Assembly (NCBI RefSeq): GCF_029360705.1
Contig: NZ_JARKMX010000008.1
Location: forward strand, 1,177,949-1,241,948
DNA length: 64,000 nucleotides
Reading direction: 5' to 3'
From: Paraflavitalea pollutisoli
GTDB lineage: Bacteria > Bacteroidota > Bacteroidia > Chitinophagales > Chitinophagaceae
Both the position numbers and the translations under genes were made by a program. The notes under the pieces were generated by a model. It worked only from the letters and a program-made list of their open reading frames with translations. It was not told the DNA's origin and did no database searches. This document shows, piece by piece, positions 8,436 through 63,678 of this stretch (within the stretch, counting starts at the first letter, position 1; every line of letters begins with the position of its first letter).

Positions 8436-8444
8436 TGTACCGGC

Positions 8445-8717: not shown

Positions 8718-8735
8718 CACTTCAACCAACGTTAT

Positions 8736-9818: not shown

Positions 9819-9836
9819 CTGGTCTTCCTGAGAATG

Positions 9837-10519: not shown

Positions 10520-10535
10520 ACAAAGGGCATAAAAA

Positions 10536-10563
10536 ATCCCTGCTGCGACCATACAGCAAGGAT
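10536..10563. terminator. Bidirectional hairpin between convergent genes
   Basis: Arms atccctgctg (10536-10545) and cagcaaggat (10554-10563) pair with one G-T wobble. A-rich sequence to the left would give a T run on the minus strand, so it should terminate the SnoaL-like gene or both neighbours. Confidence 0.6.
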
Positions 10564-10581
10564 TCACTTATAAGGAGGCTA

Positions 10582-10935
10582 TTACTTCTTTTTATCGATA
10601 TTGTAAGTTACCATTTTTTTGATCTTCCCGTTCTCCATCTGATATACATCGCAATAGTCCATATGGTACTCTTTACCTGTCTTGTCATTGCGGCACAGCA
10701 CTTCCCCTGTAATAGCCGCCTCCTCGCCCTGCAAGATAAAATGAGTGCGGGTAGATCTGACTAATTTCATATCCGCATTGTCCGTAAAGAATTTACGCAG
10801 CGCATCCTTCCCATCAATCGTCATATCCCCGATCATATCCCAATGCATATCATCAGTAACATAGCTTAAAATGGCCTCGGTATCATTCCTGTCGAATGCG
10901 CCCAGGAATCCATTCAAAATTTGTTTATTGTCCAT
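10582..10935 (-). CDS. NTF2-like / SnoaL-like protein
   Basis: The 117-residue cone-shaped-fold protein has family marks: MDNKQILNGFLGAFDRNDTEAILSYVTDDMHWDMIG at the start, a central IDGKDALRKFF helix, and the terminal strands YCDVYQMENGKIKKMVTYN. SnoaL/NTF2-like proteins bind or isomerise small hydrophobic ligands, but most stand-alone members have no known substrate. There is no signal peptide, so it is cytoplasmic. It is convergent with the CarboxypepD_reg gene and appears to be monocistronic. Confidence 0.8.
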   Translation of the reverse strand: MDNKQILNGFLGAFDRNDTEAILSYVTDDMHWDMIGDMTIDGKDALRKFFTDNADMKLVRSTRTHFILQGEEAAITGEVLCRNDKTGKEYHMDYCDVYQMENGKIKKMVTYNIDKKK

Positions 10936-11105
10936 AGCAAAACGGTTTCGTTAAAGTGTGTTCAACAAAGCTAACAATCCCGTGCCAGCCTGGCCGGGTA
11001 CCTACCTGACAAATCGCAGGGGGTATTGCGACAATTCAGTATATTGTAGTTACTTGAAAACAACATCCTAGTCCTGCCCTACCGTTCAATAACCAACACG
11101 ATCGC

Positions 11106-11672
11106 ATGGACCAATTCTTCCACATCCGGATGCTCATGAGCATTATCGTCAGTCTCAGCGTGGCGACACTCCTGAAAGGGGTTGCCAAACTAATCGAGCA
11201 CCCCACCAAAGTAAAACTCTATTGGGTGCACCTATCCTGGGTATTGTATATATTCCTAACGCTCATCGATTTCTGGTGGTGGGAAATCAGGTTGAAAGGC
11301 GTTAAAGAATGGAGCTTTCAATCTTACCTGTTCATTATCTGTTATGTGGTCGTATTTTATATCATCTGCTCGCTGCTCTTCCCCGACGACATGAAGGAGT
11401 ACGATGGCTACAAGGGATATTACTATTCCCGCAAAAAATGGATCTTCTCCTTTCTGGGCATCTCCTTTCTGTTCGACGTGGGCGATACCTTTCTCAAAGG
11501 CGTCGAATACTATCAGTCGTTGGGCACCGAATACCTGGTGCGGATCATGGTGCATGTGCTCCTATGCCTGGTGGCCATCCGGTCGCGCAATGAAAAGGTA
11601 CATGCAGCCCTGGTGATCTTCTTCCTCTTGTACAACCTGATCTGGTTTATCCGGAAATACCAGGTACTGTAG
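11106..11672 (+). CDS. Hypothetical membrane protein with about six helices
   Basis: The 188-residue protein is not recognised as a named family. Hydrophobic segments near residues 8-26 (MLMSIIVSLSVATLLKGV), 40-58 (VHLSWVLYIFLTLIDFWWW), 75-92 (SYLFIICYVVVFYIICSLLF), 113-128, 146-160 (IMVHVLLCLVAI) and 168-183 suggest five to six membrane spans. A short soluble loop (DDMKEYDGYKGYYYSRKK) carries many tyrosines. It is followed by, and convergent with, the GHKL-nuclease gene, 58 bases apart. No function can be assigned. Confidence 0.65.
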   Translation: MDQFFHIRMLMSIIVSLSVATLLKGVAKLIEHPTKVKLYWVHLSWVLYIFLTLIDFWWWEIRLKGVKEWSFQSYLFIICYVVVFYIICSLLFPDDMKEYDGYKGYYYSRKKWIFSFLGISFLFDVGDTFLKGVEYYQSLGTEYLVRIMVHVLLCLVAIRSRNEKVHAALVIFFLLYNLIWFIRKYQVL

Positions 11673-11730
11673 ACGGCAGTTTTCTTTAATGAACAATAGA
11701 CAAAACAGGCAGCACTCCACCACCACGTTG

Positions 11731-49102: not shown

Positions 49103-49129
49103 GAAGCCGGCCTTTACCGGCCAGCCTTC
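49103..49129. terminator. Hairpin between convergent genes
   Basis: Arms gaagccggcc (49103-49112) and ggccagccttc (49119-49129) pair with one bulge. T-rich sequence follows on the plus strand. It overlaps the 3' end of the minus-strand gene. Confidence 0.5.
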
Positions 49130-52100
49130 TTTTCTTCTTTCAGTTCCGCCAGGAAACTCACCACATCCCGAATTTCTTTCTTCGAAAGCAGGTACCGCAT
49201 TTCGGGCATGCTGGAGGCTGCATCAGTGCGGGTGCCTATGGTAGCTTTGGCTACCACCTCGGTTTTATCACCCACTTTGAGCGTAATGTCTTTATCAGTC
49301 TCGCCGGTCAGGATGCCGGTCAACGTTTTACCATCTTTCAATTTCAATATCACAGCACCATAACCAGGCGCCAGGCGCGCACTGGGTTTCACCAGGGCTT
49401 CCAGCAATTGTTCACGCGTCAGGTGGTCGGCAATACCATTCAACCGGGGGCCTGCGTTGCCACCATAGTCGTCGTACGAATGACATTTAATACACTGTGC
49501 CGTCTGATTGGAATAGAAGATCCTGCGACCCTTTTGCGGATCGCCACCATACAGACTGCCGGCATAAGACGCACTCAGCGTATCACCGGAGAGGCCATTG
49601 CTCACGGTTTTGTATTTTGCGATCAGGGCCGATGAACGGCTGCTATCGATCGCCTCCGCCAACTCGAGGTACATGACAGCAGGCAGTTTACCCGACGACA
49701 TTTTAGTCAGTAAACCTTCCAGCACCGGTTGCGAATATTGCACGGGCAGGTTACCCAGCGTCAGCAAAGCCGCCTGCTGTTCTTCCGTCGTTTTCGTATT
49801 GATCACATCGGTCAGCAACGACACCATCAACTCTTTGGAGATATTCATCTTCGCGATCAGGTCGATGCCTGCCACACGAACGGCTTTATCTTTATCCGCT
49901 ACTGCCAGCTTGATCGCTTCACCGATCTGCGCATACTGCAACTTCGCCAACGACTTCAAGGCGCCTACCCGCACCGCAGGTACCGCATCGCGTTGCAAAA
50001 GGCCCAACAACACCGGGTTGCTCTGGGCAATCCCCAATCGGCTGACAGCCTTGACGGCACTCAGCCGCACCTTTTCTTCTTTATCAGTCAGCAAGCTGGT
50101 CAGCGCATCTCCTGACTTTGCTTTCACTTCGTTCGAATCCCTGGTAAACTCACCACGATACCTTCCGTCCACCCGGTCCACCAACGAAGGCTTCACCCAG
50201 GTGCTCAGCGCATCGATGGCTTCCGCCCGCATAGCGGCGGGCGCACTGGCCTTGCCCGCAAATTCGATCAGCCGGGCCATTGCCTCGCTGGTGCCCAGTC
50301 GTAGGTTCGCATTGATAGCGCGCCGTAGCAAGGCTTCATTGCTATAGATAGTGGTCGGCAGGATGCCGCCCAGTGCCGGCATGGCATCCCTGATCGACAG
50401 GTCATCATTGATACCCCGGGCTGCTTCCGTTACTATGAATTCATCCGTATCCTGGAGGAATGAAGCTATACCCGGATGCTCCATCCGGCGCAATGCTACG
50501 ACGGCAGCAATACGCACCGGGCGGGAAGGATCTTTGGCCAATGCCACCAGGGGTTCGGCTTTACCGATCCGCGCCAACGCCAGACTAGCCCCATGGCGGA
50601 TATATACATCTTCATCATTGTTATTGCGTAAGAGACCGATGAGGGCATTCACCGCAGGTTCATACCCAATTCTACCAATAGCTTCGGCAGCGAAAAAGCG
50701 CGCCCTGCTATACGGGTCATTCAGCAGCACGACCAACTTTTCACCTGCTTCCTTGTATTTGATATCGCCCAGCCATTTGGCCGCCTGCGCCCGGATCTCA
50801 GGATCTTTGTCTTGCAGCAGCGGCAGCAAAGCCTGTGCGTATTTTGCCTCCTTCCGGGCCAGCTGGCTCAATCCCCAGATGGCATGCACCCTTGACAACT
50901 GCTGGCTGTTGGGCGCCAATACCTTCTTAAATACTTCCTCTCCCGCTGCACCGCGTTTCACCAGTTCAAACTGCGCCTTCATACGCACCTGTTTGTCGGC
51001 ATTTGAAAGCAATGCGCCCAGTTCATCGGGTTGCTTTTGGGAGAAATCAGCTACCAACAGCGACTGTGTCAGTTTACGGTCTGCTTGTCCTACTCCGCGT
51101 TTATCATCCAGCTTCCAGATACGGCCATAGTCATGCGTCTTCCAACCATCGATCCAATCTGCGATGTAGAGCGCTCCATCGGGACCAAAGTCAAGCCCCG
51201 TCGGCAATATGCCGCCAACCACCAGGGTATCGTCGCCCAATTCAAAACCGGCGCCTTTCGCATTCAGCTTGAAACCATACACACCCGACTGGGCGGGATT
51301 ACCTACAAACTTGGCGATAAAGAACATATTTTTAAAAGCGGGGCTCAGAGCCGTTCCGGGGTTGTATACCATCCCGGCAGGGCCGCTCACATAGTTGGCC
51401 ACACAAGGCACGATATGAGCAGCCTGTCCTTCCCAGCGGGGCTTCCACATCTTTTCGTCCATCCACACTTTATAGGTGTTATTGAGCGGATCACGGTATT
51501 TTCCGTATTGCCAGTTGGCACGCCAGCCGGCATCGGCGCCGTTTACGACATACACCAGGCGCTCTTCTTCACCGGCATGGTCACCGTCATTGTCTTCACT
51601 GATCAGGTTGCCGTAGTCATCAAATACAAACTCATGGGTATTGCGCAAACCGTGTGCGAATATTTCAAAGTCGCTGCCGTCGGGATTGCTGCGGGCAATG
51701 ACACCGCAGTTGGGATAAGACCAGCGTTTACCGGTTTGGTCAACCCCGTTGAAACCAATATCACCGATCTGCCAGTAGATCCTGCCATCGGGCCCCATCT
51801 CTACCCCCGACATACCATGGCCGCTAAAGCCGATATGGATGCCATAGCCGTTCGACATGGACGTCTTTTCATCGACAATACCATCCCCATTCTTGTCTCT
51901 CATGCGCCACATATCCGGGCCTACCGCCACATACAGGTTTTCACCATCTTTCATCACGCCACCGGCAACGTCGGTCACCTCGTCATGGAAATCATCCACC
52001 ACCAGTTGTGACTGATCGGCGACCCCGTCGCCATCGGTATCCCGCAACCGGTATATATTATCTTTCTCCACGGTCATATCCCGCCAGTCGTGCGAGCTAT

Positions 52101-52548
52101 CGCCATTCAGGTCAGCCAGCCAGGTATTGTGCTGGCTGTTTTCCGATGAGAGGTATTTGTGCAGGAAGGCACGTTTATCGTCGATGGATTGCAACTGGAT
52201 GGAAGGTATCTCCCAATCCTGGTGGCCGCGAATATCAAACTCGGAGTTCTTTTGCCGGTTCGTGGTGGTATAATACAGGCTACCATCATCATCGATATCG
52301 ATGGCAATCGGGGAGATCACCAGGGAATCGATGCCCCATAATTTCAGGGTCAGGTTGGTATCCGTAATAATAGGTTTGACAACAGAGTCTACAGATGCCG
52401 CCATCCTGGCTGCTTTGGCAGGCTCTATTTGTTTGATGCGTTTGTCGGCGGGTTCCTGCCGGCAGGCTGCGAGCAGGGCAACAGAAAAAGACAAAAACAA
52501 CAGGGATCGGCTGGTCCGGGGCGGGTTGGTACAGGTCTGTGCAATCAT
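49114..52548 (-). CDS. Large lipoprotein: sugar-dehydrogenase-like propeller, HEAT repeats and cytochrome c (DUF7133/PVC-type)
   Basis: 1144 residues from ATG 52548, chosen because it directly precedes a lipoprotein signal (LLFLSFSVALLAAC); a reading from 52638 adds an unlikely leader. Residues about 60-470 form a glucose-dehydrogenase-like propeller (DIDDDGSLYYTTTNRQ, GHGMSGVEMGPDGRIYWQIGD, GLRNTHEFVFDDYGNL). Residues 480-1000 are HEAT repeats (DPEIRAQAAKWLGDIKY, VRVGALKSLAKL). A C-terminal cytochrome c domain has CIKCH as haem site and MPEMRYLLSKKEIRDVVSFL. Proteins of this layout are periplasmic or surface oxidoreductases with unknown substrates. It follows the VirD4 gene by 139 bases on the same strand but is probably independent. 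Confidence 0.85.
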   Translation of the reverse strand: MIAQTCTNPPRTSRSLLFLSFSVALLAACRQEPADKRIKQIEPAKAARMAASVDSVVKPIITDTNLTLKLWGIDSLVISPIAIDIDDDGSLYYTTTNRQKNSEFDIRGHQDWEIPSIQLQSIDDKRAFLHKYLSSENSQHNTWLADLNGDSSHDWRDMTVEKDNIYRLRDTDGDGVADQSQLVVDDFHDEVTDVAGGVMKDGENLYVAVGPDMWRMRDKNGDGIVDEKTSMSNGYGIHIGFSGHGMSGVEMGPDGRIYWQIGDIGFNGVDQTGKRWSYPNCGVIARSNPDGSDFEIFAHGLRNTHEFVFDDYGNLISEDNDGDHAGEEERLVYVVNGADAGWRANWQYGKYRDPLNNTYKVWMDEKMWKPRWEGQAAHIVPCVANYVSGPAGMVYNPGTALSPAFKNMFFIAKFVGNPAQSGVYGFKLNAKGAGFELGDDTLVVGGILPTGLDFGPDGALYIADWIDGWKTHDYGRIWKLDDKRGVGQADRKLTQSLLVADFSQKQPDELGALLSNADKQVRMKAQFELVKRGAAGEEVFKKVLAPNSQQLSRVHAIWGLSQLARKEAKYAQALLPLLQDKDPEIRAQAAKWLGDIKYKEAGEKLVVLLNDPYSRARFFAAEAIGRIGYEPAVNALIGLLRNNNDEDVYIRHGASLALARIGKAEPLVALAKDPSRPVRIAAVVALRRMEHPGIASFLQDTDEFIVTEAARGINDDLSIRDAMPALGGILPTTIYSNEALLRRAINANLRLGTSEAMARLIEFAGKASAPAAMRAEAIDALSTWVKPSLVDRVDGRYRGEFTRDSNEVKAKSGDALTSLLTDKEEKVRLSAVKAVSRLGIAQSNPVLLGLLQRDAVPAVRVGALKSLAKLQYAQIGEAIKLAVADKDKAVRVAGIDLIAKMNISKELMVSLLTDVINTKTTEEQQAALLTLGNLPVQYSQPVLEGLLTKMSSGKLPAVMYLELAEAIDSSRSSALIAKYKTVSNGLSGDTLSASYAGSLYGGDPQKGRRIFYSNQTAQCIKCHSYDDYGGNAGPRLNGIADHLTREQLLEALVKPSARLAPGYGAVILKLKDGKTLTGILTGETDKDITLKVGDKTEVVAKATIGTRTDAASSMPEMRYLLSKKEIRDVVSFLAELKEEKKAGR

Positions 52549-52687
52549 GGTTCTAAAAATATTCCATTTTTTCCAAAAACCGGCGCACCACCCCTTCTTT
52601 CCGGGTGTTTGGTTAATCAACAACCGAACATCCCGCAAAAAAGTATCATATTCCCTATCAGTTGTACAGACCGCTCGCTAACCTACG

Positions 52688-54679
52688 CTAAAAGAGACTT
52701 TGATACCCCGGTGCCAACTGGAAGGGAAAATGCATGCCTGTCTTGAACTTTCCATCATTGAAGAACTTTATTTTTCTGGCCCGGATGGGATAAAGTTCGT
52801 CGGTAAAGATCAACTGCAGAGAGGTCCTGAACAACTGGTCGGGATATACCAGCTTGCGTTCCTGGCTGGTATAAGAATGGGTGGCATTTTTACCGTTATA
52901 CCCACCAGGCACACCGATGGTGCCGGTCGTGATCGTCGTCATGCCTGCCAGCGCAGAAACATACTCTGCCGTCGTTTGGTCCGAGACCCCAAAGAACTGT
53001 TGTACCCTGGCATTGGAGGAAAAAGTTTTCCAGGCATTCGCCCCATAAATCGATTCCATCTGTGGAATATCCTGGAAGAACATCCACAGGTTCAGCCCAT
53101 ACCCACGCAGCAGACTTACCGCCTGCATCAGCGGCTCCATTTTTCCCAATTGGGCCATTTCATCCACCAACATGAGGATACGTTCTTTCGGCAGCTCCGG
53201 GCTGATGGAAATAGCACTGATGATCGAGGCGATCCAGATGCGCGCCAACCGGCTATAGGTGTCTATCTTATTGGACGGCAGGACCAGGTAGATCGACCTT
53301 GCTTTTTCTTTGATATCCAGCAGGCTGCAGTCTGCACGACTGAGGTTATTGCCAGCCATAGGTGAACCGATAAACTCGAGGTGACGCAAGACGAATGACA
53401 AGACAGATTTACCTTCTTCGGCCCCCATCAGTTTGAACTCACTGGCCATGGCCTTGAGGTAGTAAGCATGCTTACTCTGCTGGCAAACATTGTAGAAAGC
53501 GGTCAATGCTTCTTCGTCTTCAAAAACCTCCAGTATCAATGTTCTCAATTCAACAAGGTTCTTCGGCTCATCCGCATACATTTCATGCAACACCAGAAAA
53601 ACAATCATGTTTTTAATGATCATGCGTGCTTTCTCATTCCAGTGCGGATCGGACTCTTCCTTTGTTTTCACCACGATCATATTGGCCAGCACAGCCCCCT
53701 GGTCGATCACTTCCTGGTAATTGCCGGCAGCAGCTAGTGCTGTTATCGGCTCAAGTGGATTGATGCCCTTGTAATAGTCGCCGGAGGGCTGCCGCAGCGT
53801 TCCATCAACCTCAAAAACAGGTGGCGCTACGCGGGATAGCAACCCGGTATAAAAAGATTTGATCTCCGCGATATTCGGAAAATCATGCTTACTTGCTTCA
53901 ATAAGCTGGATACGGCTAAGCTGCCGCTCTACCTGTTTGTGCACTTCTCCAAATGGATCGATCAGACAAATCTCCTGTTTATGCAGATTTGCCCGGGCAT
54001 ATACACTACGAATAAAGTTCTCCCCTTTGGGGTCGATCACCACCACCGATCCGTTGTAGTTGAGCAGATTCGGCACTACCACCCCTACGCCTTTACCCGA
54101 ACCCGTCTTCGCAACGGTAAGGATATGACCTTCGCCACGAAATCCGATCATGGCCCCACTATCGGGGTCCCGGCCAAGGATGAACCCATTCTCTTCGGTC
54201 ATACCTTTGCCTTCCAACTCCTTGAACCGGCTAAAACGCGATTCGCCAAAAGTGCCCGGAGGTGTATCGAAATTGAAATCCCCACCCTTGACCAGGTACT
54301 TGTACAAGATCAGTATCAGGCCTATACCAGCCAACAGGTATAAGGCCAGTGGCGAGATCCTGTACAACAGGTAACCAAGAAATACCAGTGATAACCCGTT
54401 AAAGAAGGCATTGTTGATGAACTTCAAGGGTGATTTCACAAAAAGCAAGTAGAAAGCGCCAAAGCACAGCAATAGCAACACAAGCTTACTCAAAGTAGCC
54501 ACCGGGTCGCTCATGTTCAACAGGAAATCGTCCAGCATCGCCGTCGTGCCCGGCGCTTCGGTATGCACATACACATTGTAAAGAATACTGGCTGTCAACA
54601 AAGAAAGCGCGATCACGAAAGCACCCTCCTTCCACAGGAAGAGCAAGGGCCTTCCCAGGTTACGAAATATCTGGTCCAT
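52688..54679 (-). CDS. VirD4/TraG-family coupling ATPase (orphan type IV secretion component)
   Basis: 663 residues from ATG 54679. Four N-terminal spans between residues 19 and 130 (GAFVIALSLLTASILYNVY, LVLLLLCFGAFYLLFV, GLSLVFLGYLLYRI, LYLLAGIGLILILYKYL) anchor it. The T4CP ATPase core is complete: Walker A VAKTGSGKG with Lys196, VVIDPKGE near 213-220, GINPLEP near 305, Walker B LMLVDEMAQLG with Asp506 and Glu507, and FFQDIPQ with Gln536. Coupling proteins pump DNA or effectors through type IV secretion channels as hexamers. Here no VirB4, pilus, relaxase or pore gene is nearby. It is the last gene of a compact run with VWA, membrane, charged, TPR and NB-ARC genes, 12 bases after the VWA gene. 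Confidence 0.9.
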   Translation of the reverse strand: MDQIFRNLGRPLLFLWKEGAFVIALSLLTASILYNVYVHTEAPGTTAMLDDFLLNMSDPVATLSKLVLLLLCFGAFYLLFVKSPLKFINNAFFNGLSLVFLGYLLYRISPLALYLLAGIGLILILYKYLVKGGDFNFDTPPGTFGESRFSRFKELEGKGMTEENGFILGRDPDSGAMIGFRGEGHILTVAKTGSGKGVGVVVPNLLNYNGSVVVIDPKGENFIRSVYARANLHKQEICLIDPFGEVHKQVERQLSRIQLIEASKHDFPNIAEIKSFYTGLLSRVAPPVFEVDGTLRQPSGDYYKGINPLEPITALAAAGNYQEVIDQGAVLANMIVVKTKEESDPHWNEKARMIIKNMIVFLVLHEMYADEPKNLVELRTLILEVFEDEEALTAFYNVCQQSKHAYYLKAMASEFKLMGAEEGKSVLSFVLRHLEFIGSPMAGNNLSRADCSLLDIKEKARSIYLVLPSNKIDTYSRLARIWIASIISAISISPELPKERILMLVDEMAQLGKMEPLMQAVSLLRGYGLNLWMFFQDIPQMESIYGANAWKTFSSNARVQQFFGVSDQTTAEYVSALAGMTTITTGTIGVPGGYNGKNATHSYTSQERKLVYPDQLFRTSLQLIFTDELYPIRARKIKFFNDGKFKTGMHFPFQLAPGYQSLF

Positions 54680-54691
54680 AAGCAGTTTTTA

Positions 54692-55582
54692 TTAGTAAGT
54701 CTTTATTACGTTGTACAATTCGTCCATCGTCGTAGTATTGAAGTACTTCATTTGGTGCTGATATACGTTTATCGTTGTATCCGAGAAATACTCTTCCCAG
54801 AAATTACGTACATTAATCTTGGCCATAGGACTTTGGGATACAATAGAAGTAGAATAGCTATCATATACCACCACTTTCGCCTGTTGCAGGTTACAAAGCA
54901 GCTTCTTCTCCCGCAACGACGTAAACAGCGGCTGAAATTCACTGTGCTGTATCCCTTTCTTGGTATTAAAATTTGCCAGTTCACTTTCCTGCACGAGGTC
55001 GGAGAAAATTACCAGGTAATTCACATTGTCCTCACCGGAAATCATTGATTTTTCCTTTTGCTTTACCATATCATCTTTCACACTATAGATCGCTGAAAAG
55101 ATATCCGTTTCCCGACCATAAGGACGACGCACTTGTTTTAGCGAGTCCAATCGTCGCACGATCATCGGCGCTATTACTTTTACATACCCATCCAGGCGTT
55201 TTTGCTTGCGGGATGCCGCCGTGAATGCGTCTTCTCCTTTCTTTTTGAATGGGGGACTGATAGAATCCGGCAGGTTAAGATGCTTGAAAGTAACACCCAT
55301 TGTATTGGTCGCACTGCGAAAGTCTTCATATACGATGGCCACGCGGTCGGTGATTGAACCGCCGTCGATGGGGTACACGATGAGCCGGTCTTCGGGTCCC
55401 ATCGCATACAGGATCGTCTTGATACCTTCGGCATAAGATAACATTTGCCGCTCCTCCAGGCTATTCGAAAAATCTACCAGGCAGATAATATTTTTTATTT
55501 CCGGCCGGAAATCCGGTGGGCATTTACCGCTCAGGAAAGGAATGGAGAGAATAATCAGTAAGGGGAAGTATTTCTTGATCAT
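54692..55582 (-). CDS. Exported VWA-domain-like protein
   Basis: 296 residues with a Sec signal (YFPLLIILSIPFLSG); the following Cys lacks a perfect lipobox. The body resembles a von Willebrand A domain: the first strand and MIDAS loop ICLVDFSNSLE with Asp37, Ser39 and Ser41; ETDIFSAIYSV as the likely Thr site; YLVIFSDLVQES as the Asp site. A metal-dependent protein-binding role in the periplasm is expected. It starts at ATG 55582, inside the last codons of the preceding gene (ATGA overlap), and is followed by the VirD4 gene after 12 bases. Translational coupling argues strongly for a shared complex. The VWA assignment is by motif, not search. Confidence 0.75.
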   Translation of the reverse strand: MIKKYFPLLIILSIPFLSGKCPPDFRPEIKNIICLVDFSNSLEERQMLSYAEGIKTILYAMGPEDRLIVYPIDGGSITDRVAIVYEDFRSATNTMGVTFKHLNLPDSISPPFKKKGEDAFTAASRKQKRLDGYVKVIAPMIVRRLDSLKQVRRPYGRETDIFSAIYSVKDDMVKQKEKSMISGEDNVNYLVIFSDLVQESELANFNTKKGIQHSEFQPLFTSLREKKLLCNLQQAKVVVYDSYSTSIVSQSPMAKINVRNFWEEYFSDTTINVYQHQMKYFNTTTMDELYNVIKTY

Positions 55583-56631
55583 ACGGCAGTTTTGAGCGGG
55601 TTTTCAACATTTTCAAGTATGCGTAAGGTTTCCGGCTCCAGCCGCTGTTTGACAAATTCCTTCAGCTGATTCTGGTCAGTGGTATGGGGCAGTCCGGAGG
55701 TATTGTACCGCTCTTGCTTTCCTTCTGCAGAACGCATTTTTGTGTTCAGTCCTTCCAGGTAATTGCGAAACCGGTTCACACGACGATAACTGTTGGCAAT
55801 TTCCTTATTGAGGGTTCTTGCCCGCCGCACAGAGAACACATCGATGAAATTCAGTTTCTTCTTTTTATCGTACTCAACGATATGACGGTAGCGGATCATG
55901 GCCCTATAGGCAGACACGATGTTGTGGTTCTTCTTGATCAGCAACATACAAATCCCTCCCAGGAAAGGTAGCAACAAGGCCACCAGGGTGATCGGCGATA
56001 CCAACATACCATTGCCTGTCACCGTCAATCCTGCAGCCTGTGCCATCACCTCCGCCCTCTTCTGGGAAAACAGGAAAATTGCCCATAAGCAACCTATTAA
56101 CATCAACGCACTAAGTACCAGGAAAAGCAAACGACTTTTTTCGCCTACCCCTATTTTTTGAGAAAAACTAATATTGGTCGAGTCCGGGAAATTGAATTTC
56201 TCCTTATCGCTTTCAAGCCAGTGGTGAAACAACACCTCGAGGGTAAGATCGGCGGCAATGATACTACCGAGGGTAAGGATCAGCGCCGTAAATACACGCA
56301 TGGATACCGCCCGGATGCCTTCCTCCCCCGGCATGATAAATATCTCCATATTTTCATAGTTGAGGGAAGATTCTGCAATCAGCAAGGCGACAAAAACAAC
56401 GAGAAAAAGCGCTTTCTTCAATAGCGAATTTTTATACACATTGCGCTTCGCTGTCATATTCACCACATCTCCGTCGGTAATAAATGACTGGTGGTCTTTC
56501 GACAAAAAGGAAAGTTGACGGTTGATGCGTTTCACGGTTTTGGTAACGACATGCGACGCGAAATTCTCCAGCCCCTTTTCTTTATTTTTCAACCATTGGC
56601 GGTGAGTAATTGGGAATAAAAATGTCAGCAT
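55579..56631 (-). CDS. Four-helix membrane protein of the VirD4/STAND cluster
   Basis: 350 residues, not a recognised family. Spans near 73-86 (LLKKALFLVVFVALLIAE), 109-128 (MRVFTALILTLGSIIAADL), 165-183 (LLFLVLSALMLIGCLWAIF) and 211-233 (VSPITLVALLLPFLGGICMLL) give four helices. A basic N-terminal region (1-70) and a long basic C-terminal cytoplasmic tail (YDKKKKLNFIDVFSVRRARTLNKE) follow, ending with acidic helices. It could anchor a complex joining the periplasmic VWA protein to the VirD4 ATPase. It overlaps the VWA start by four bases and lies 26 bases after the small charged gene. Confidence 0.7.
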   Translation of the reverse strand: MLTFLFPITHRQWLKNKEKGLENFASHVVTKTVKRINRQLSFLSKDHQSFITDGDVVNMTAKRNVYKNSLLKKALFLVVFVALLIAESSLNYENMEIFIMPGEEGIRAVSMRVFTALILTLGSIIAADLTLEVLFHHWLESDKEKFNFPDSTNISFSQKIGVGEKSRLLFLVLSALMLIGCLWAIFLFSQKRAEVMAQAAGLTVTGNGMLVSPITLVALLLPFLGGICMLLIKKNHNIVSAYRAMIRYRHIVEYDKKKKLNFIDVFSVRRARTLNKEIANSYRRVNRFRNYLEGLNTKMRSAEGKQERYNTSGLPHTTDQNQLKEFVKQRLEPETLRILENVENPLKTAV

Positions 56632-56657
56632 AAACAGCTTTTTGGTATTCGTGTAGG

Positions 56658-56903
56658 TTATAACTTCAAATTATTACCGGGCTTAGGCTTGGGCGTGTAT
56701 TTTTCAGCATCCGTCTTGTTCGGGACAGGTACTTTGGTAATATCATTGCCGTTCTTCTGATGATCGTCCTTGAGCTCTTTATTTTGCTCTTTGGTCCTCG
56801 GCTCTTTCTCTTTTGTAGCCTCTGTCGACTTACCGGCCTTCGAAGCGTCGGAAGGGCCGTTTTTATCGGCAAAGGAATCTGCTTTGTCTCTGAATTTGCT
56901 CAT
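56658..56903 (-). CDS. Small charged, probably disordered protein
   Basis: 81 residues from ATG 56903 (MSKFRDKADSFADKNG); the longer open frame to 57038 has no protein character upstream. The protein is rich in Lys, Asp, Glu, Asn and Pro (TKEKEPRTKEQNKELKDD, KTDAEKYTPKPKPGNN) with no hydrophobic core, hence probably unfolded. A secretion substrate, chaperone-bound peptide or linker is possible. It lies 26 bases before the membrane protein gene and 177 bases after the TPR gene on the same strand. Without homologues, whether it is functional rests on its position in the run. Confidence 0.5.
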   Translation of the reverse strand: MSKFRDKADSFADKNGPSDASKAGKSTEATKEKEPRTKEQNKELKDDHQKNGNDITKVPVPNKTDAEKYTPKPKPGNNLKL

Positions 56904-57080
56904 GGGATAATATTTTATCCAAAGAAATTCAACTCCGGCAAACACCCATACATGTTGTATGGTTTGCACCCGAAAACTCTTTCCCAAATCCATAAAATAC
57001 TTTTTCACCGGCCCGACCGGGAGGCCCATTACGCCCACAAAAGACCAGACATTGACCCAATAACGTTGTGCAGTAAATGT

Positions 57081-58634
57081 TTAGGCAGGAAATGAAAGCT
57101 TAAAAAAATACGAGGCATTTAGCCTTCTGCCAATGGAGGGATATAACCCGATCATTTTCCTGATCACCCAGCCAACGCTTGCCAGGTAGCCAGGATCTCC
57201 GGGCGACCGATGCACAAACTGCATGGATGCCCGGTAATACAGTAAAAAATAGTACAATGACTTACGTATATCATTCGAGGCACACCAGGCCAGTCCGAGG
57301 TCCTGGTACACGATAGCCAGGTCGTCCTGATACTGCATCACCTCCGGATGCGTACGGCACAATTCTTTACTCAATGACAATTGATCCGCAAGAAAAGACA
57401 ATGCCTTCACATGATCACCTGCAGTACTGTATACTGCAGCCAGCCGGCCTAGCGACAGCCCTTTCAATCGCTGCTGACCGCGATAGGCCGGTTCATACAC
57501 GGCTACCGCTTGGGCGTACTCCGCAAAGCGCAGGTACTGCGCCAGGGCCTCTGCGGATTGCTGCCGTGCCAGATAAACATCTCCAATGTGCATATACACC
57601 GTCGCCATGCCCGCACTCATTTGCACCAAACCGGGTTGTTTGTGCAACAATTTCTCCCTGATACCCAGGCATTCACCATAACATTCCAACGCTTTATCAA
57701 ACTGGTTGGCCGCCCGGTAGGCGCCCCCCATCCTATTGAGCGAAATAGCATGTATCTCCGGGTACCAAAAGTTCTCGGGAAAACGATCGCATAGGTCGCG
57801 CAACTGGTTTTCGCCCGCCCGGAAACAATTGTCAGCAGCCCGGTGCATCGACAACGTAAGATAGGCCATACCGGTGTCCATCAACACCACTCCATACTCC
57901 TTCTGCACTTCCGCATATTGCTTCATCGACGGCCAGCACTTCCTGTATTGCCGGATAGCCTGTTTATAAAACGAAAGCGATAAAGCCAATTGACCATTGT
58001 CACGGTAAACAGCTCCCATTTTGCCCAAAGCCCTGGCCAGGTCGAAAGGCAGCTCATTGTCACCGCCAGCCCAACCCGCAAAGTGTTGCATACGTTCATA
58101 AAATTGCCGGAAACAAGCTGAAGCCTCTTTCACCTGCCCGTTTGCCAACAACACCTCACCCAACACCTCGAAGGAGAGCAGGTAATTCCTGTAGTAGTAA
58201 GCATTCAGCGGGAACTCCCGGTGTAGCTGCTCCTGCACCACCAGTGCAGTGCTCAAAAAATGAATAGACCGATCGTATTGTTTTTGTTGAAAATAATAAC
58301 GGCCCAACCGGTCTATCGACTGGAGCATCTCGCTCGTGAAAGATGCTTTATCGACGGCCGGACCAACCGTTTCGAGGTAACCGCCCAGTGCCTTTACATG
58401 TTCTTCATAGACCATAGCAGCAGCATCCTGCTGCCCCATTTGTGTCAGTATATTCGCCCGGTTAAGCAGGCAAGTGGTATAACCGATATGCCCGGCAGCA
58501 CGGTAAAGCGCCTCTGCCTGTTCAATCACTTCCAGCGCCTCCCGGTATTCTCCATTTTCCTGCAACGGCTCAGCGATCGACAATACGCCTTCCGCCCAAA
58601 CCAGGGCCTCATCGCCTGCTGTTTCTTCCTGCAT
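57081..58634 (-). CDS. TPR-repeat protein, partner of the NB-ARC ATPase
   Basis: 517 residues made almost wholly of tetratricopeptide-like helix pairs: EYREALEVIEQAEALYRAAG, FQQKQYDRSIHFLSTALVV, YRDNGQLALSLSFYKQAIRQY, YRAANQFDKALECYGECLGI, YLARQQSAEALAQYLRFAEY and YSTAGDHVKALSFLADQLSL. At least six to eight repeats fill residues 15-480. No signal peptide or enzymatic domain. It begins 7 bases after the NB-ARC ATPase stop, so the two are translated together. In NLR-like STAND proteins the sensor repeats are usually on the same chain as the NTPase; here they are a separate subunit. Confidence 0.85.
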   Translation of the reverse strand: MQEETAGDEALVWAEGVLSIAEPLQENGEYREALEVIEQAEALYRAAGHIGYTTCLLNRANILTQMGQQDAAAMVYEEHVKALGGYLETVGPAVDKASFTSEMLQSIDRLGRYYFQQKQYDRSIHFLSTALVVQEQLHREFPLNAYYYRNYLLSFEVLGEVLLANGQVKEASACFRQFYERMQHFAGWAGGDNELPFDLARALGKMGAVYRDNGQLALSLSFYKQAIRQYRKCWPSMKQYAEVQKEYGVVLMDTGMAYLTLSMHRAADNCFRAGENQLRDLCDRFPENFWYPEIHAISLNRMGGAYRAANQFDKALECYGECLGIREKLLHKQPGLVQMSAGMATVYMHIGDVYLARQQSAEALAQYLRFAEYAQAVAVYEPAYRGQQRLKGLSLGRLAAVYSTAGDHVKALSFLADQLSLSKELCRTHPEVMQYQDDLAIVYQDLGLAWCASNDIRKSLYYFLLYYRASMQFVHRSPGDPGYLASVGWVIRKMIGLYPSIGRRLNASYFFKLSFPA

Positions 58635-58641
58635 CGAATAA

Positions 58642-60210
58642 CTACTTTTTACTGATTGACAGTTCCGGCAACTTACGTGACGCGGCCCGCAAATACTTTT
58701 TATAGGCGGTGAATTCGCTGTCTGACATGGCTCGCCGATCGTGCATGATCTCCGTTAACGATTTCACCAAAGGAGCACAATTCTTCATAGTAGGTTTTAA
58801 CTTCTCGGCTACCACCTCCTGTATCAGGTGGTGCATCTTATAGGTCAAGCCCTGTTTACCGGCATATTCACTTTTTATCCAGCCGGTTTGCTTCAGGATA
58901 TCCAGCCGCTCCTCAAAATCATTGGCCTGCTGCTCTTTGACCTGCCAAAGTGTTTTCAGGTGATTGATCGGGATCTCTACGGAGGGCAAAACGGAAAAGA
59001 ACTGCAACATGCTAACCCTTTGCCGGTTCTCCGCAGCCACAGACTCTTCGGTTGTTGCAGCCAGCAGGTAATCGGTATCGAATATACTCAGCATGTACTG
59101 GTGCAGGGTGGCTTTGCTCAGGCTGTTGGAAGTGTGGAAAGGGTGCGCTCCGGTATTGACAGGCCTGTCCAACGCCGGGTGCCGAAGATCGGCAGCCTTG
59201 AGGTGTTCCAGCAATTGTTGCGGCGTAGCCCGCGTTTTATACCCTGTTTTGGCGAGTAATTCTGTAAATAAGGTATGACAGCGAATATGATAGAGCAGTT
59301 TCTCCAGGTCGGGCCGCAGTTGCCGCTCCTTCATGTACTGGAACAATGACGTTTCTTCCCGGTCAGTCATATCCGGCACATAGTAATGCAAAAATAACAA
59401 CATGGCATCTTTCAGGTCCAGCTCCTTTACATCGATATACTCCATCCCATCGGGGTTGGTGCGTGTCGTGATCAATATCTTCCAGCCTGTTCTCCTGAAA
59501 TGACGATACATGCTCACCAGCTCATCATAATCGGCTTCGTTGATATTGTCGATGGCTACCAGGTTGTCGCCCTCCTGCCGCTGCATAGCCTGTATCACCA
59601 TCTCCAACCGCTTCTCCCTGGCAAAAACCGCAGAAAGATCGAGTTGCAACGCGTCGGCCACCCCCTGCACAAAAGCACTCTCCAGGTTCCTATGCACCGA
59701 TACGGAAATGATCCATTTAAAGTGCTGGCGGCAAAGGTCCCTGTTCAGGTACTCGTGCAGTAAAGTGGTCTTTCCCATTCCGCCCATACTGGTCAACAAC
59801 AACACATTGTCACGTTGTCTCCTGTCCGTAAGCCGGTCATGGATTTCCCGCAACAGTTCACCCCGACCCAGGAATAGTTCAGGCCTTGCCGGCATGTTGA
59901 TGTGATATTTTGAATGCAGAAAGGTGCCAGCTGATTCTTCGACCGGTGCAGCTATCGAGGCTGTCAACACCTCCTGATCCATGGCCTGTCGAAAGACATC
60001 GAAGTTTTTGTACCCTGTATAGGTCAGAAATAGCTGCCGGGTGTCAGCGTGCAGATCACCCAGGCTATCATTTTTAAGATAGCGTGCAGCCTGGGCCGGA
60101 GAAATGTCCGTATCGGTCGACAATATTCTAGCCTTTCCGGCACATTTTTCCCGCACCTTTTCCCAAAGCTGCCGGTTATACTCTTCCTCATTGAATCGCC
60201 AAATCATCAT
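58642..60210 (-). CDS. NB-ARC STAND ATPase (NLR-like)
   Basis: 522 residues. Residues 1-85 form a small helical domain (ISPAQAARYLKND, YTGYKNFDVFRQAM). The NB-ARC module follows: LFLGRGELLREIHDRL at 112-127, Walker A SMGGMGKTTL (141-150) with Lys147, Walker B NLVAIDN with Asp221, ILITTRTNP (RNBS-B/sensor 1) with Arg250, winged-helix region and an MHD-like MHHLIQE at 459-465. All key nucleotide-binding residues are present, so it should be an active signal-transducing switch. The C-terminus is short and has no sensor repeats; the next gene, 7 bases away, is a TPR protein that can supply them. STAND ATPases of this type act in defence, signalling and regulation. It is the first gene of the run ending in VirD4. 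Confidence 0.88.
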   Translation of the reverse strand: MMIWRFNEEEYNRQLWEKVREKCAGKARILSTDTDISPAQAARYLKNDSLGDLHADTRQLFLTYTGYKNFDVFRQAMDQEVLTASIAAPVEESAGTFLHSKYHINMPARPELFLGRGELLREIHDRLTDRRQRDNVLLLTSMGGMGKTTLLHEYLNRDLCRQHFKWIISVSVHRNLESAFVQGVADALQLDLSAVFAREKRLEMVIQAMQRQEGDNLVAIDNINEADYDELVSMYRHFRRTGWKILITTRTNPDGMEYIDVKELDLKDAMLLFLHYYVPDMTDREETSLFQYMKERQLRPDLEKLLYHIRCHTLFTELLAKTGYKTRATPQQLLEHLKAADLRHPALDRPVNTGAHPFHTSNSLSKATLHQYMLSIFDTDYLLAATTEESVAAENRQRVSMLQFFSVLPSVEIPINHLKTLWQVKEQQANDFEERLDILKQTGWIKSEYAGKQGLTYKMHHLIQEVVAEKLKPTMKNCAPLVKSLTEIMHDRRAMSDSEFTAYKKYLRAASRKLPELSISKK

Positions 60211-60613
60211 ATATCAACGAATTAGACGGTTGTACTAAATATCCCCTACAATTTTCCCGGGCTACAGGAGAATGTCCTGGTCCTTCAGGAGAAAATAAGA
60301 GCACGTTATGAGAAATGCTTGTACGGTTATGAGAAAACAGTGACGCACGCCCCCTTTTAAATAGCTCCAACTGATCACATCTTCTCATAAGCCTTGCTGA
60401 CATTTGATGCAGCAAACGGCACAACACCAGCGGTTATACAGCGCTGATTATCCTCCGGAGAAGTAACCAGGTTGACCGTTCGCCAGTTCCCTGGCCAGGG
60501 TTCTTTTCACCAGCCCGAGATTCCAGACACCCAGCACGATGACATCAAGCTGGTCAGCAATGACCATCCGGACTTCTCATGGCTATTCCGAAAACAATTT
60601 CAATCAAAAAACA
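60211..60613. other. Divergent intergenic region with repeated TTATGAGAA boxes
   Basis: About 400 bases between the STAND gene and the small lipoprotein gene. No gene is seen. gttatgagaaa occurs at 60305-60315 and 60326-60336 (21 bases apart, about two helical turns), and the inverted form ttctcataa at 60382-60390. These look like operator sites for a regulator of one or both flanking genes. Confidence 0.45.
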
Positions 60614-60886
60614 ATGACAAAGAAAATAATAGCATTACTCATGCTCCTATCAGCCCTGTATAGCTGCAGCAAAAAAGACAGCGAAGACGATGATCGTAAA
60701 ATAATCATCAAACCACCAACAAACAATACCACTTCACCCGACTCTACTCAACAATCATCCGCAGGAGAGGATGACGACAGAAAGATCATCATCAAAACAT
60801 TCGCCGCGGAAGGTGCCGCCGCCGACTCAACCAGTGAAGGAGAAGATGGCGAAGACGATGACAGAAAGATCATCATCAGACCCTAA
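60614..60886 (+). CDS. Small lipoprotein with three 28-residue repeats
   Basis: 90 residues from ATG 60614 (MTKKIIALLMLLSALYSC); an upstream extension to 60539 is not needed. A lipoprotein signal with Cys18 is followed by three copies of EDDDRKIIIK(R) at residues 24-33, 52-61 and 80-89, an exact period of 28 residues or 84 bases. The linkers are Ser/Thr/Gln/Ala/Gly-rich. No family is recognised. The acidic-then-basic-then-isoleucine pattern could bind cations or a partner surface. A perfect terminator follows, so it is monocistronic, and the kinase gene starts 69 bases later. Confidence 0.65.
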   Translation: MTKKIIALLMLLSALYSCSKKDSEDDDRKIIIKPPTNNTTSPDSTQQSSAGEDDDRKIIIKTFAAEGAAADSTSEGEDGEDDDRKIIIRP

Positions 60887-60896: not shown

Positions 60897-60927
60897 CATC
60901 CGGAATCTAACAATTCCGGATGTTTTT
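60897..60927 (+). terminator. Terminator after the repeat lipoprotein
   Basis: Perfect 10-bp arms catccggaat (60897-60906) and attccggatg (60913-60922) with a 6-base loop, then five T residues. Confidence 0.9.
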
Positions 60928-60955
60928 GTTATTTTTAAACACCACACTGCTTATT

Positions 60956-62893
60956 ATGCTATCCAAACCAATTGTTTGTATACTGACGACCCTGCTGTTC
61001 ATCCAGGCCTGCCGACCATTTGCCAAAGACAAGTTATATGCCCTCACACACCAATTGGAGGATGCCAATTTACCCGATAGCCAGCAAATAGCCTTGATAC
61101 TGCAGGCAGATTCACTGGCCGCGCTGGCGGGCAACGACAGCATCCGGGTAGCCTTACACACCAGGGCGGGAGAATTATACCTGAATAAGTCCAGGGCACT
61201 GCAGGCAAAAAAGCATTTCCAGCAAGCGGTCTCCATCGCGACACAAACCAGGGACCAACAAAAACTGGCAGCAGCGCTCAACAATATCGGAGTGGCCTGG
61301 GACGACCTGGCCGAATCCGATAGCGCTATCAAATATTATACATCGGCCACCTCTATCTACCGGGCAAAAAAGGACTCGCTGCGTCTGGCACAGGGCCTTG
61401 TAAACATAGGCATTCTATATAAGAACAAAGGCGACCATGAACAAGCCGTGGCTGCCACCACGGAGGCGGCGGCTATCCTGGAAAACACCAACGACAAACG
61501 CAGTCTTTCCGATGCCTATAGCTCGTTGGGCAATAGCCTGAAAGACCTCAACCGGTATGAGCTGGCCCTGTCATATCACCACAAAGCGCTCCGGCTACGC
61601 GAAGCCATCGATGATTCTTTTGGTATAGCGCAGTCATTCAATAACATCGGCAATATCTATCGCTACCAGAAAAAATACCCGGAAGCGTTGCAGCAATATG
61701 CCGCTTCACTCGCTATCAAAGAAAAATCGGGTACCCCCAAATCCATTGCCAACACCATCGATAACATCGCCGTCGTATACCTCGAGCAACGCCAGTATGG
61801 ACAAGCCAGGGCCTACTTCGGGAAAGCGCTTGCCCAAAGAAAAGCTGCCAACGATAAAGAAGGCGTTATCACCACCATCAACCGGCTCTGCCAATTGCTC
61901 ATCGAGATGAATGACCTGAAAGGGGCATCCGAACTGGCACAACAAGGCGATAGCTTATCGCAGCAACTCGATAATCCCAAGCAGCGGATCGATAACATCA
62001 GTGTATTGACAGAAATCAATCGCCGAACAGGCAACCCCCAGGCAGCCCTGGCTTACGCCTTGCTCAACCTGCAGTTGAAAGACAGTCTGTTCAATCGGGA
62101 TATCGCACAGGCCACTACACAGTCCGAAACAAGATACAGAGCCCTCGAAAAAGAACAGGAGCTGGCATTTGTCAATCAGCTCAAAGACCAGCAGACGATC
62201 GAGATCAACAGGCAAAAAATATTCATCGTAGCGCTGTCGACCCTGCTGGCCTTGCTGATCCTGGCCACCATATTACTGATCAGGTCCCGAAACACGGTCA
62301 ATGTATTGTTCAAAGAACTGGCTCACCGGGTAGATAACAACCTGCAGATCCTGCTGGGCGTGCTAACGCTGAAAAAATATACCACGAAAGATCCGGACCA
62401 GCAGGCCGCACTCCAGACGCTCGAAGAGCGTGTCAACGCCATGGCATCTATCCATCATATATTGAAGGCCCCTGCCTACAACAAGCGTGTACAGGTAGAC
62501 ATGAACCTTTTCATCAACGACCTGGTAACGCATATCAACAATACTTACGCGAAGGCATCGATCCACTTTACAGTTCGCACGGACATCGACACTGCTCCTT
62601 TCGAAGGAAACCGGGCAGTAACCATCGGCTTGCTTATCAACGAATTATTGACTAACCTTTACAAGCATGGCACACCCCGGCACAACAGCGGAGAGATCCG
62701 CGTGAGCCTGAAAAGATCGGACAAGAAATACCTGTTAACGATTGCTGATGATTGTGCGCCCTGGCATCCGGCGCCAGGAAAGGGCAATAAAGGAATGGGA
62801 CTATTTTTGATTCAAACATTGAGCGAACAACTGAAGGGCAAACTGAAGACAGCAAGCAACGATTCCGGCACCACCACCACCCTGTTGTTTTGA
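60956..62893 (+). CDS. TPR-containing sensor histidine kinase (HisKA_2 type)
   Basis: 645 residues from ATG 60956 (MLSKPIVCILTTLLFIQAC), chosen because it precedes a signal/lipobox-like segment. Residues 60-360 contain about seven TPR units (AAALNNIGVAWDDLAESDSAIKYY, YSSLGNSLKDLNRYELALSYHHKAL, FNNIGNIYRYQKKYPEALQQY). A coiled stretch and one span (IFIVALSTLLALLILATILLI, about 423-443) lead to the kinase core: ELAHRVDNNLQILLGVL with the phospho-acceptor His, N box LLINELLTNLYKHG and G box GNKGMGLFLIQTL. It senses an envelope signal and phosphorylates a response regulator, very likely the convergent LytTR protein 11 bases away. Confidence 0.9.
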   Translation: MLSKPIVCILTTLLFIQACRPFAKDKLYALTHQLEDANLPDSQQIALILQADSLAALAGNDSIRVALHTRAGELYLNKSRALQAKKHFQQAVSIATQTRDQQKLAAALNNIGVAWDDLAESDSAIKYYTSATSIYRAKKDSLRLAQGLVNIGILYKNKGDHEQAVAATTEAAAILENTNDKRSLSDAYSSLGNSLKDLNRYELALSYHHKALRLREAIDDSFGIAQSFNNIGNIYRYQKKYPEALQQYAASLAIKEKSGTPKSIANTIDNIAVVYLEQRQYGQARAYFGKALAQRKAANDKEGVITTINRLCQLLIEMNDLKGASELAQQGDSLSQQLDNPKQRIDNISVLTEINRRTGNPQAALAYALLNLQLKDSLFNRDIAQATTQSETRYRALEKEQELAFVNQLKDQQTIEINRQKIFIVALSTLLALLILATILLIRSRNTVNVLFKELAHRVDNNLQILLGVLTLKKYTTKDPDQQAALQTLEERVNAMASIHHILKAPAYNKRVQVDMNLFINDLVTHINNTYAKASIHFTVRTDIDTAPFEGNRAVTIGLLINELLTNLYKHGTPRHNSGEIRVSLKRSDKKYLLTIADDCAPWHPAPGKGNKGMGLFLIQTLSEQLKGKLKTASNDSGTTTTLLF

Positions 62894-62904
62894 CAACAGG
62901 ATTA

Positions 62905-63678
62905 TCATTCAAAAACATCATTAGGCGATTGCAACTTATTGGTCGTAACCAGCTTCTTCAACCTGCTGAGCACATCCGGCTTAAATGACTGCGTAAGCGG
63001 TATCTGCTTAGTGCCGATAACGAGTGCATCAGCTGTAATACTATCTACCCGGTGGATATTTACATAAAAAGACTTGGCCGTCTTGACGATGGCCGGACAG
63101 CCCAACTGCGCCACGACATTATTCGAACTCATGGTAATCGTATACAGGCGGCTGTTGGAACAATGGATCTTCGTGTAGGCCCCGTCGGCTGCCAGGTACA
63201 GGATATCTGAAAAAAGAACTTTTTGGTAGGCACCATTCGACAGCACGAAAATACCATTCTCCACCCTTTCACCCAATGCCTGCACGTTGCCGGCCACCAT
63301 ATCCGGCATCGCCGTTTTGGCGAAGGCCGCCGCCACCGCTTTCACCAACGCAGCTTCCGAAAAAGGCTTGCTGATATAGTCCGATGGAAACGCCGTCTGT
63401 GCCTGCCGGTATACCTGGTAGTTGGTATGATCGGTGATGAAGATCACAGGCACTTTATACTGGTGGGAAATAATACCGGCGGTGGTGATGCCATCCAACT
63501 TGCCGCCCAGCCCGATATCCATCAATATCAGGTCCGGCGCATATAGTGGGATCTGCTCCAACGCCTCTTCGCCGGAAGTGACCATCGAGCAGGTATAACC
63601 CTCATGTTCAAGTATCAGTGAGATACTTTTGCTGATGATCAGCTCGTCTTCCACTATTAAAATGTTTCCGCTGTTCAT
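62905..63678 (-). CDS. LytTR-family response regulator
   Basis: 257 residues: receiver domain with ILIVEDE at the start, the phospho-acceptor Asp54 in LILMDIGLGG, Thr in VIFITDHTN and Lys in YISKPFS; then a LytTR DNA-binding domain (ILYLAADGAYTKIHCSN, TKSFYVN-type: AKSFYVNIHRVDSI, IPLTQSFKPDVLSRL). It is the probable output of the adjacent TPR kinase, with which it converges. Such pairs usually regulate genes next to them; the repeat lipoprotein is the nearest candidate. No second regulator is in the window. Confidence 0.93.
   Translation of the reverse strand: MNSGNILIVEDELIISKSISLILEHEGYTCSMVTSGEEALEQIPLYAPDLILMDIGLGGKLDGITTAGIISHQYKVPVIFITDHTNYQVYRQAQTAFPSDYISKPFSEAALVKAVAAAFAKTAMPDMVAGNVQALGERVENGIFVLSNGAYQKVLFSDILYLAADGAYTKIHCSNSRLYTITMSSNNVVAQLGCPAIVKTAKSFYVNIHRVDSITADALVIGTKQIPLTQSFKPDVLSRLKKLVTTNKLQSPNDVFE

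What the first reader, a model, noticed from the sequence alone, without database searches (positions are those of the whole stretch)
52688..60210. Six-gene run linking an NLR-like NB-ARC/TPR pair to an orphan VirD4 coupling ATPase
NB-ARC ATPase, TPR protein, small charged protein, four-helix membrane protein, VWA protein and VirD4 lie on one strand, mostly with gaps below 30 bases and one ATGA overlap. Key ATPase residues are intact in both the NB-ARC protein (Lys147, Asp221, Arg250) and VirD4 (Lys196, Asp506, Glu507). STAND ATPases sense and oligomerise; VirD4 moves substrates. A sensor-gated export or DNA-uptake and killing device is a plausible undescribed system. The combination is what the sequence shows; the function is inference.
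Basis: partly seen in the sequence, partly recalled or inferred. Interest (0 to 1): 0.85.

Follow-up and report, generated by a model that had tools for sequence, protein, structure and literature searches.

The report
Orphan VirD4 pump with membrane-VWA partners
Beside an NLR-like gene pair lies a separate small cluster in which a DNA-transfer motor without a transfer machine sits with an unnamed membrane-plus-periplasm protein duo whose distant relatives are in some cases found inside CRISPR immune loci, which hints at an undescribed envelope machine.

Summary
The six genes are real and the named catalytic residues are present. They look like two units. In the only close relative found (Parachryseolinea silvisoli, another family), membrane protein, VWA protein and VirD4 keep their order at 55-57% identity, with a short Lys-rich ORF in front, but NB-ARC and TPR genes are missing from 40 kb and no conjugation genes were recognised nearby. 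NB-ARC and TPR together resemble one split STAND protein. VirD4 forms a deep two-member clade with an insertion of some 40-50 residues absent from 18 others compared.

The membrane-VWA pair belongs to a wider, unnamed module: 12 further loci have both genes side by side, VWA with FWxxYF in 14 of 14. Three of the 12 lie in CRISPR-Cas loci and a fourth is syntenic with one of these; five have an OmpA-type gene; none of the eight screened with the VirD4 profile has VirD4. I read the core as an orphan coupling-ATPase envelope complex, possibly defensive; function is inference. The sensor-gated link is not supported, though VirD4 loci number only two.

The parts
52688..54679 (-). VirD4/TraG-type coupling ATPase, 663 aa, four N-terminal hydrophobic segments, Walker A K196, D506/E507; insertion within residues 245-306 (between DPFG and NPL)
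54692..55582 (-). exported VWA-like protein, 296 aa, D37-x-S39-x-S41, SDL from 194, FWEEYF from 261; a lipobox pattern was found in the relative, not in the window copy
55579..56631 (-). membrane protein, 350 aa, four hydrophobic segments; Glu87 at the end of the first
56658..56903 (-). short Lys-rich ORF (81 aa, pI 9.5); a similar-looking ORF stands in the same place in the relative, but sequence similarity is not above shuffles
57081..58634 (-). TPR protein, 517 aa; neighbour, probably not part of the conserved core; best stretch matches positions 524-711 of the FxSxx_TPR model
58642..60210 (-). NB-ARC STAND ATPase, 522 aa; neighbour, probably not part of the conserved core; best stretch matches positions 1-335 of the FxSxx_TPR model

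Best explanation
Two units meet here. Unit 1 (NB-ARC + TPR) is one STAND sensor split into two genes. Unit 2 is an orphan coupling-ATPase complex: VirD4 (by family an inner-membrane hexameric translocase) with a 4-TM protein and an exported VWA protein. The TM-VWA pair is a reusable envelope module that other genomes hold beside CRISPR-Cas genes or an OmpA-type gene. Most likely working (inferred): VirD4 engages a cytoplasmic substrate, DNA or possibly the short Lys-rich protein, and drives it at or through the inner membrane; the 4-TM protein docks and gates it, and the periplasmic VWA domain senses or locks the open state. The likeliest role is protection against foreign DNA or phage, because of the module's company elsewhere. 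Shown: gene set, its conservation in one relative, change of partners among distant relatives. Inferred: complex formation, translocation, defence.
For: Same order and near-equal identity of the three proteins (57, 56, 55%) in another family. Sparse occurrence that fits joint transfer. No conjugation genes recognised among scanned neighbours and no second coupling protein by profile in the window or in 40 kb around the relative. VWA homology across subfamilies by hhalign: 2.3e-16, 8.7e-26, 2.4e-15. A gene with three or more TM segments directly before VWA in 14 of 14 loci, and FWxxYF in 14 of 14 (two near-duplicate pairs included). CRISPR-Cas company at L069, L071, L072. OmpA company.
Against: Only two loci carry VirD4. 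The membrane partner is significantly similar to that of the nearest subfamily (2.4e-7), not directly to the CRISPR-linked ones (0.13 and 0.082), only by way of the nearest subfamily (8.8e-5, probability 59.9%). No cas or defence gene was recognised beside VirD4 except the STAND pair in the window. L067, L070, L073 and the five OmpA-linked loci show no company that I recognised as defence. AlphaFold models failed (pLDDT 43.5 and 42.1). The short ORFs of the two loci are not detectably related. No assay.
Confidence: 0.4

Rival explanations
1. Six-gene sensor-gated device: the STAND pair senses infection and switches the VirD4 complex.
For: Same strand and short gaps except one; STAND ATPases are established defence sensors (general knowledge); both halves are rare among the sampled relatives; VirD4 and NB-ARC have similar GC (0.494, 0.502).
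Against: The relative lacks the pair in 40 kb; the 177 bp gap lies at the boundary.
Confidence: 0.12
2. Orphan coupling protein that lends substrates to a conjugation machine encoded elsewhere in the genome.
For: Both genomes hold Bacteroidota-type conjugation ATPases. In the 19 kb fetched around each of the two in the window genome the coupling-protein profile finds none; around the one in G622 it finds a weak match (1.9e-5) at the edge. Small plasmids with a relaxase and their own coupling protein exist.
Against: No relaxase recognised among the scanned neighbours; VirD4 sits on a stem of 1.84 changes per column apart from the other coupling proteins compared; it does not explain the TM and VWA partners.
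Confidence: 0.15
3. Secretion device for a protein substrate such as the Lys-rich product, for example in competition with neighbours.
For: Coupling ATPases also recruit proteins (general knowledge); a Lys-rich ORF precedes the core in both loci.
Against: The two short ORFs are not detectably related (1081 of 2000 shuffles score as high); no outer-membrane part recognised in the set.
Confidence: 0.15
4. General envelope maintenance or stress complex; the CRISPR company of relatives is incidental.
For: OmpA-TM-VWA sets on plasmids of Pantoea, Paraburkholderia and Aliarcobacter in surroundings that I did not recognise as defence (the Aliarcobacter one lies among IS elements).
Against: Of seven other VWA-positive genomes in a draw of 287, three hold the pair in CRISPR-Cas loci and a fourth is syntenic with one of them.
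Confidence: 0.18

Closest known systems
VirD4/TraG type IV coupling proteins (Pfam PF02534; PDB Cag5 8dol, TrwB 1e9r)
   Same: Walker motifs, T4SS-DNA_transf, TraG-D_C and TrwB_AAD_bind profiles, N-terminal TM segments
   Different: no T4SS gene or relaxase recognised beside it; insertion absent from 18 other coupling proteins compared
vWA-related systems that associate with CRISPR loci alongside transmembrane and other proteins (PMC10910872, passages seen)
   Same: VWA plus membrane protein; CRISPR linkage of some relatives of this module
   Different: the window copy has VirD4 and no cas genes were recognised; whether the paper's clusters are this family was not checked (supplements not available)
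vWA-MoxR-VMAP ternary systems (named in PMC10910872, passages seen)
   Same: VWA protein with an ATPase
   Different: the ATPase is VirD4, not MoxR AAA+; the VWA protein looks exported
FxSxx-COOH system TPR protein / NB-ARC-TPR STAND proteins
   Same: NB-ARC and TPR proteins match successive parts of one model
   Different: two genes; far below the model's cut-off (53.2 and 46.6 against 300 bits)

Membership tests
VirD4/TraG coupling proteins | Walker A/B and T4SS-DNA_transf profile | tested here: met
VirD4/TraG coupling proteins | N-terminal TM segments | tested here: met
   four hydropathy segments
VirD4/TraG coupling proteins | partner T4SS and relaxase in the locus | tested here: not met
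   none recognised among 10 window neighbours and 10 L012 proteins scanned with Pfam; farther neighbours were not scanned
STAND NB-ARC | P-loop, Walker B Asp, sensor Arg | tested here: met
STAND NB-ARC | effector domain on the chain | tested here: inconclusive
   no N-terminal domain recognised by Pfam, PADLOC or NCBIfam; an unknown domain is possible
VWA domain | Pfam VWA profile above cut-off | tested here: not met
VWA domain | MIDAS D-x-S-x-S and a later Asp | tested here: met
   D37, S39, S41, D195 in the window protein
CRISPR type III accessory module | cas genes in the locus | tested here: not met
   none recognised beside the window or L012 copies; met for relatives L071 and L072
known anti-phage systems of PADLOC 2.0 | model match | tested here: not met
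   only mad8 at 1.2e-5 to VirD4, an ATPase-type match by my reading; otherwise nothing below E 0.3
functional defence system | protects against phage or plasmid | not testable with these tools
   no assay

The most novel reading that the evidence does not exclude
The TM-VWA pair is a transferable membrane end-piece that bacteria plug onto different nucleic-acid machines: type III CRISPR complexes that sense RNA, or an orphan VirD4 motor that grips DNA. The VirD4 version would be a stand-alone, ATP-driven envelope immune device that detects or pumps out invading DNA, with the periplasmic VWA protein as its gate.
Probability: 0.22. Interest if true: 0.85.

Novelty: new variant of a known kind. 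Interest (0 to 1): 0.6.

Why it matters
Coupling ATPases are treated as parts of conjugation and secretion machines. A conserved set in which one sits with a membrane-VWA pair instead would be a new use of the motor. The pair has no Pfam, NCBIfam or PADLOC name above cut-off in the members scanned, yet it recurs in the window's phylum and on plasmids of Pseudomonadota and Campylobacterota beside three kinds of partner, which gives a direct way to test what it does.

Tried and rejected
Viral-contig scans with VirD4, membrane and VWA queries: seven scans, no close relative; one search gave six coupling proteins at 22-28%. VirD4 against plasmids gave 3389 records, none covering 80% of the query, the 15 listed at 31-33% identity. 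Plasmid tblastn with membrane and VWA proteins of the window and L012 and with the VWA proteins of L069 and L070: no match; phages with the window VWA: no match. Structure predictions from two-row alignments failed, so no fold search was run. Homology of the two short ORFs is unproven. A direct-repeat search found no repeats flanking the run; no Rfam match at gathering threshold in the window; promoter-like and terminator-like sites were about as many as in shuffles. Four weak membrane-profile matches (E 3.3e-4 to 3.9e-3, L024-L027) were not followed up. Of the eight stretches fetched around the distant VirD4 matches I read ORF lists of two, L035 and L037, which look like Trb-type conjugation loci by eye; the other six were only scanned for the VWA and membrane profiles. 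L050, a fragment, was left out of the tree. Papers: searches gave no paper; one search gave 905 papers holding at least one of the two terms, 15 listed; two searches gave PMC10910872 only; one search gave 18, 12 listed; one search gave 111, 12 listed, none of these with VirD4; one search gave one on Bartonella toxins. In these listings I saw no paper on this gene set. Only open-licence PMC text is held.
Full report
WHAT IS THERE. The six ORFs exist on the minus strand at the stated coordinates, in the order NB-ARC, TPR, short Lys-rich ORF, membrane protein, VWA-like protein, VirD4. Junctions are 7, 177, 26, -4 and 12 bp; the 177 bp gap lies between TPR and the short ORF if the ATG at 56903 is used (42 bp with an upstream GTG). 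Pfam recognises NB-ARC, TPR and VirD4 strongly; the membrane, VWA and short proteins have no match above cut-off.

HOW COMMON. The host genome has 8.76 Mb in 16 contigs. The membrane protein was found in 1 of 119 genomes (the window's own and relatives), its own. VirD4 at E <= 1e-30 was found in 1 of 195 genomes of the family, its own, and at E <= 1e-25 in 9 of 395 of the phylum: its own and eight others at 26-33% identity. The membrane profile in 392 phylum genomes gave its own and four weak matches at 3.3e-4 or worse. These draws overlap in part. A scan of the genome-contig collection (84,980 species) with six exact VirD4 peptides matched 39 stretches, of which one encodes a relative: Parachryseolinea silvisoli (Cytophagales, Fulvivirgaceae), 56% over the full length (L012). 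Such a scan can miss relatives of that identity or lower. In a draw of that genome's family the membrane profile matches 1 of 148, its own (none of the listed handles had been drawn for the window's family, so I take it as another family). In a draw of its order VirD4 at E <= 1e-30 matches 3 of 321: its own and two partial matches near 1e-33 and 1e-31.

THE RELATIVE. L012 has the membrane protein (8072-9106), VWA (9113-9988) and VirD4 (10001-11983) in the same order, 55, 56 and 57% identical to the window. A short Lys-rich ORF (7842-8054) stands before them as in the window, but its sequence is no more similar to the window's than shuffles (1081 of 2000 reach the score), so it is only positional evidence. 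NB-ARC and TPR queries have no match at E <= 1e-4 in L031, L012 and L032, which together cover 40 kb. No conjugation gene was recognised in the 10 L012 proteins scanned, and a coupling-protein profile finds only the VirD4 itself in the window and in these three loci.

TWO UNITS. The NB-ARC protein matches positions 1-335 and the TPR protein positions 524-711 of one NCBIfam model (FxSxx_TPR), both far below its cut-off. In 119 genomes the NB-ARC protein has other matches in one genome only (same order, about 30%, two places); one of these is a frame that runs from NB-ARC into TPR-like repeats, the repeats judged by eye. So the pair reads as one STAND protein in two genes. GC is 0.44-0.46 for short ORF, membrane and VWA genes, 0.494 for VirD4, 0.50-0.52 for NB-ARC and TPR and 0.50-0.54 for flanking genes; VirD4 therefore does not stand apart from NB-ARC by composition. 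In three same-genus genomes (G001-G003) the gene left of VirD4 has an ortholog (80-84%) but none of the six genes matches in the 10-17 kb fetched beside it.

VIRD4. The window and L012 proteins form a clade with 100/100 support on a stem of 1.84 changes per column; its place among 17 other coupling proteins is unresolved. From DPFG to the end of NPLxx they have 71 and 66 residues; 18 others have 11-30 (L050, the 11, is a fragment). PDB relatives by sequence are Cag5 and TrwB. Both genomes also carry Bacteroidota-type conjugation ATPases (TIGR03783): two in G000, 2.2 Mb away on the same contig and on contig C11, and one in G622, 163 kb away. A VirB4-type Pfam model adds no further place. In the 19 kb fetched around each, the coupling-protein profile finds nothing in the two G000 loci and a weak match (1.9e-5) at the edge of the G622 one; so I cannot say that these elements bring their own coupling protein.

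THE TM-VWA MODULE. A profile of the two VWA proteins was searched in 287 phylum genomes: 8 have a match, one being the window's; 12 match rows fall in nine genes. I fetched the eight other loci (9-19 kb, several cut by contig ends). None has a VirD4 match (best E 0.1), and two have a membrane-profile match in the gene just before VWA (8e-6 and 4.5e-5, L067 and L070). L071 is a type III-A CRISPR locus (Csm1/Cas10, RAMPs, Csm4, a CARF protein, Cas6, a reverse transcriptase) with a membrane gene and VWA inside. L072 holds type III-B genes (Cmr2, Cmr4 and Cmr6 above cut-off, Cmr3 and Cas6 below), an RT-Cas1 fusion and an array of 14 repeat copies, with the pair among them. L069 has RT-Cas1 and an array of 65 copies before the pair; no effector complex was identified there. 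L068 is a 9 kb contig with the same genes around the pair as L069. L067, L070 and L073 show no such company; L074 has the weakest VWA match (9.9e-4). Plasmid tblastn with two of these VWA proteins gave Paraburkholderia, Caballeronia, Pantoea and Aliarcobacter matches, 25-32% over about half the query in the rows listed. In the four records opened that carry annotation (L075, L080, L081, L082) the order is OmpA family, a protein with TM segments, VWA; L074 also has a glycine-zipper/OmpA-like protein in front by my reading. The fifth opened record, L076, has no annotation there.

HOMOLOGY WITHIN THE MODULE. VWA profiles align across subfamilies (2.3e-16, 8.7e-26, 2.4e-15). In 14 of 14 VWA proteins compared, FWxxYF and SD[M/L] are present, D-x-[ST] in the first 80 residues in 13 of 14, and a gene with three or more TM segments lies directly before in 14 of 14 (gap -77 to +94, start codons chosen by me). 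The 14 include near-duplicates (L068/L069, L081/L082). Membrane partners: window/L012 against L067/L070 2.4e-7 (probability 93.5%); L067/L070 against L071-L073 8.8e-5 (59.9%); direct comparison of window/L012 with L071-L073 and with L069 is not significant (0.13 and 0.082). A Glu followed by S, G or F at the end of a hydrophobic stretch was found in 11 of 14; the pattern was chosen after looking, so it is suggestive only.

PRIOR WORK. [quoted passage not shown] So a VWA-membrane-CRISPR association is in print in general terms; I could not check the supplement for this family. Searches for VirD4 with von Willebrand, for orphan coupling proteins and for VirD4 with defence terms showed nothing on this set in what was listed.

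READING. The last three genes, perhaps with the short ORF, are an orphan coupling-ATPase complex on a reusable envelope pair. Translocation of DNA or protein by VirD4, gating by the TM protein and a periplasmic VWA role are inferred from the families; a defence role is inferred from the CRISPR company of some relatives and is weakened by the OmpA-linked members. The NB-ARC/TPR pair may be an unrelated neighbour; two loci cannot exclude a recent functional addition.

Noticed in passing
60539-60886: Small ORF with three copies of a ~40 bp repeat at 84 bp spacing that encode DDRKIIIK-like units.
   Followed up: no
60920-63678: Convergent TPR-histidine kinase (HisKA_2) and LytTR response regulator next to the run.
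   Followed up: no
L012:2788-5691: TPR-CHAT protein (CHAT 4.7e-65) two genes from the Parachryseolinea set, opposite strand; TPR-CHAT proteins are known in type III-E immunity (recalled).
   Followed up: no
L071:6171-7926: CARF protein plus an unnamed 330-aa protein directly before the TM-VWA pair in a type III-A locus; a possible signal-to-membrane route.
   Followed up: partly
L067:1250-1771: ORF after VWA with a GIY-YIG-like motif by eye; untested.
   Followed up: no
L075, L080, L081, L082: Three-gene set OmpA / TM protein / VWA, the last two annotated as hypothetical or zinc-ribbon proteins, on large plasmids of Paraburkholderia, Aliarcobacter and Pantoea.
   Followed up: partly
L077, L078, L079: Bacteroidota-type conjugation loci in the window genome (two) and the Parachryseolinea genome (one).
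   Followed up: partly
49114-52638: Large HEAT-repeat/cytochrome c protein (DUF7133), 80-84% conserved in three same-genus genomes, left flank of the run.
   Followed up: partly
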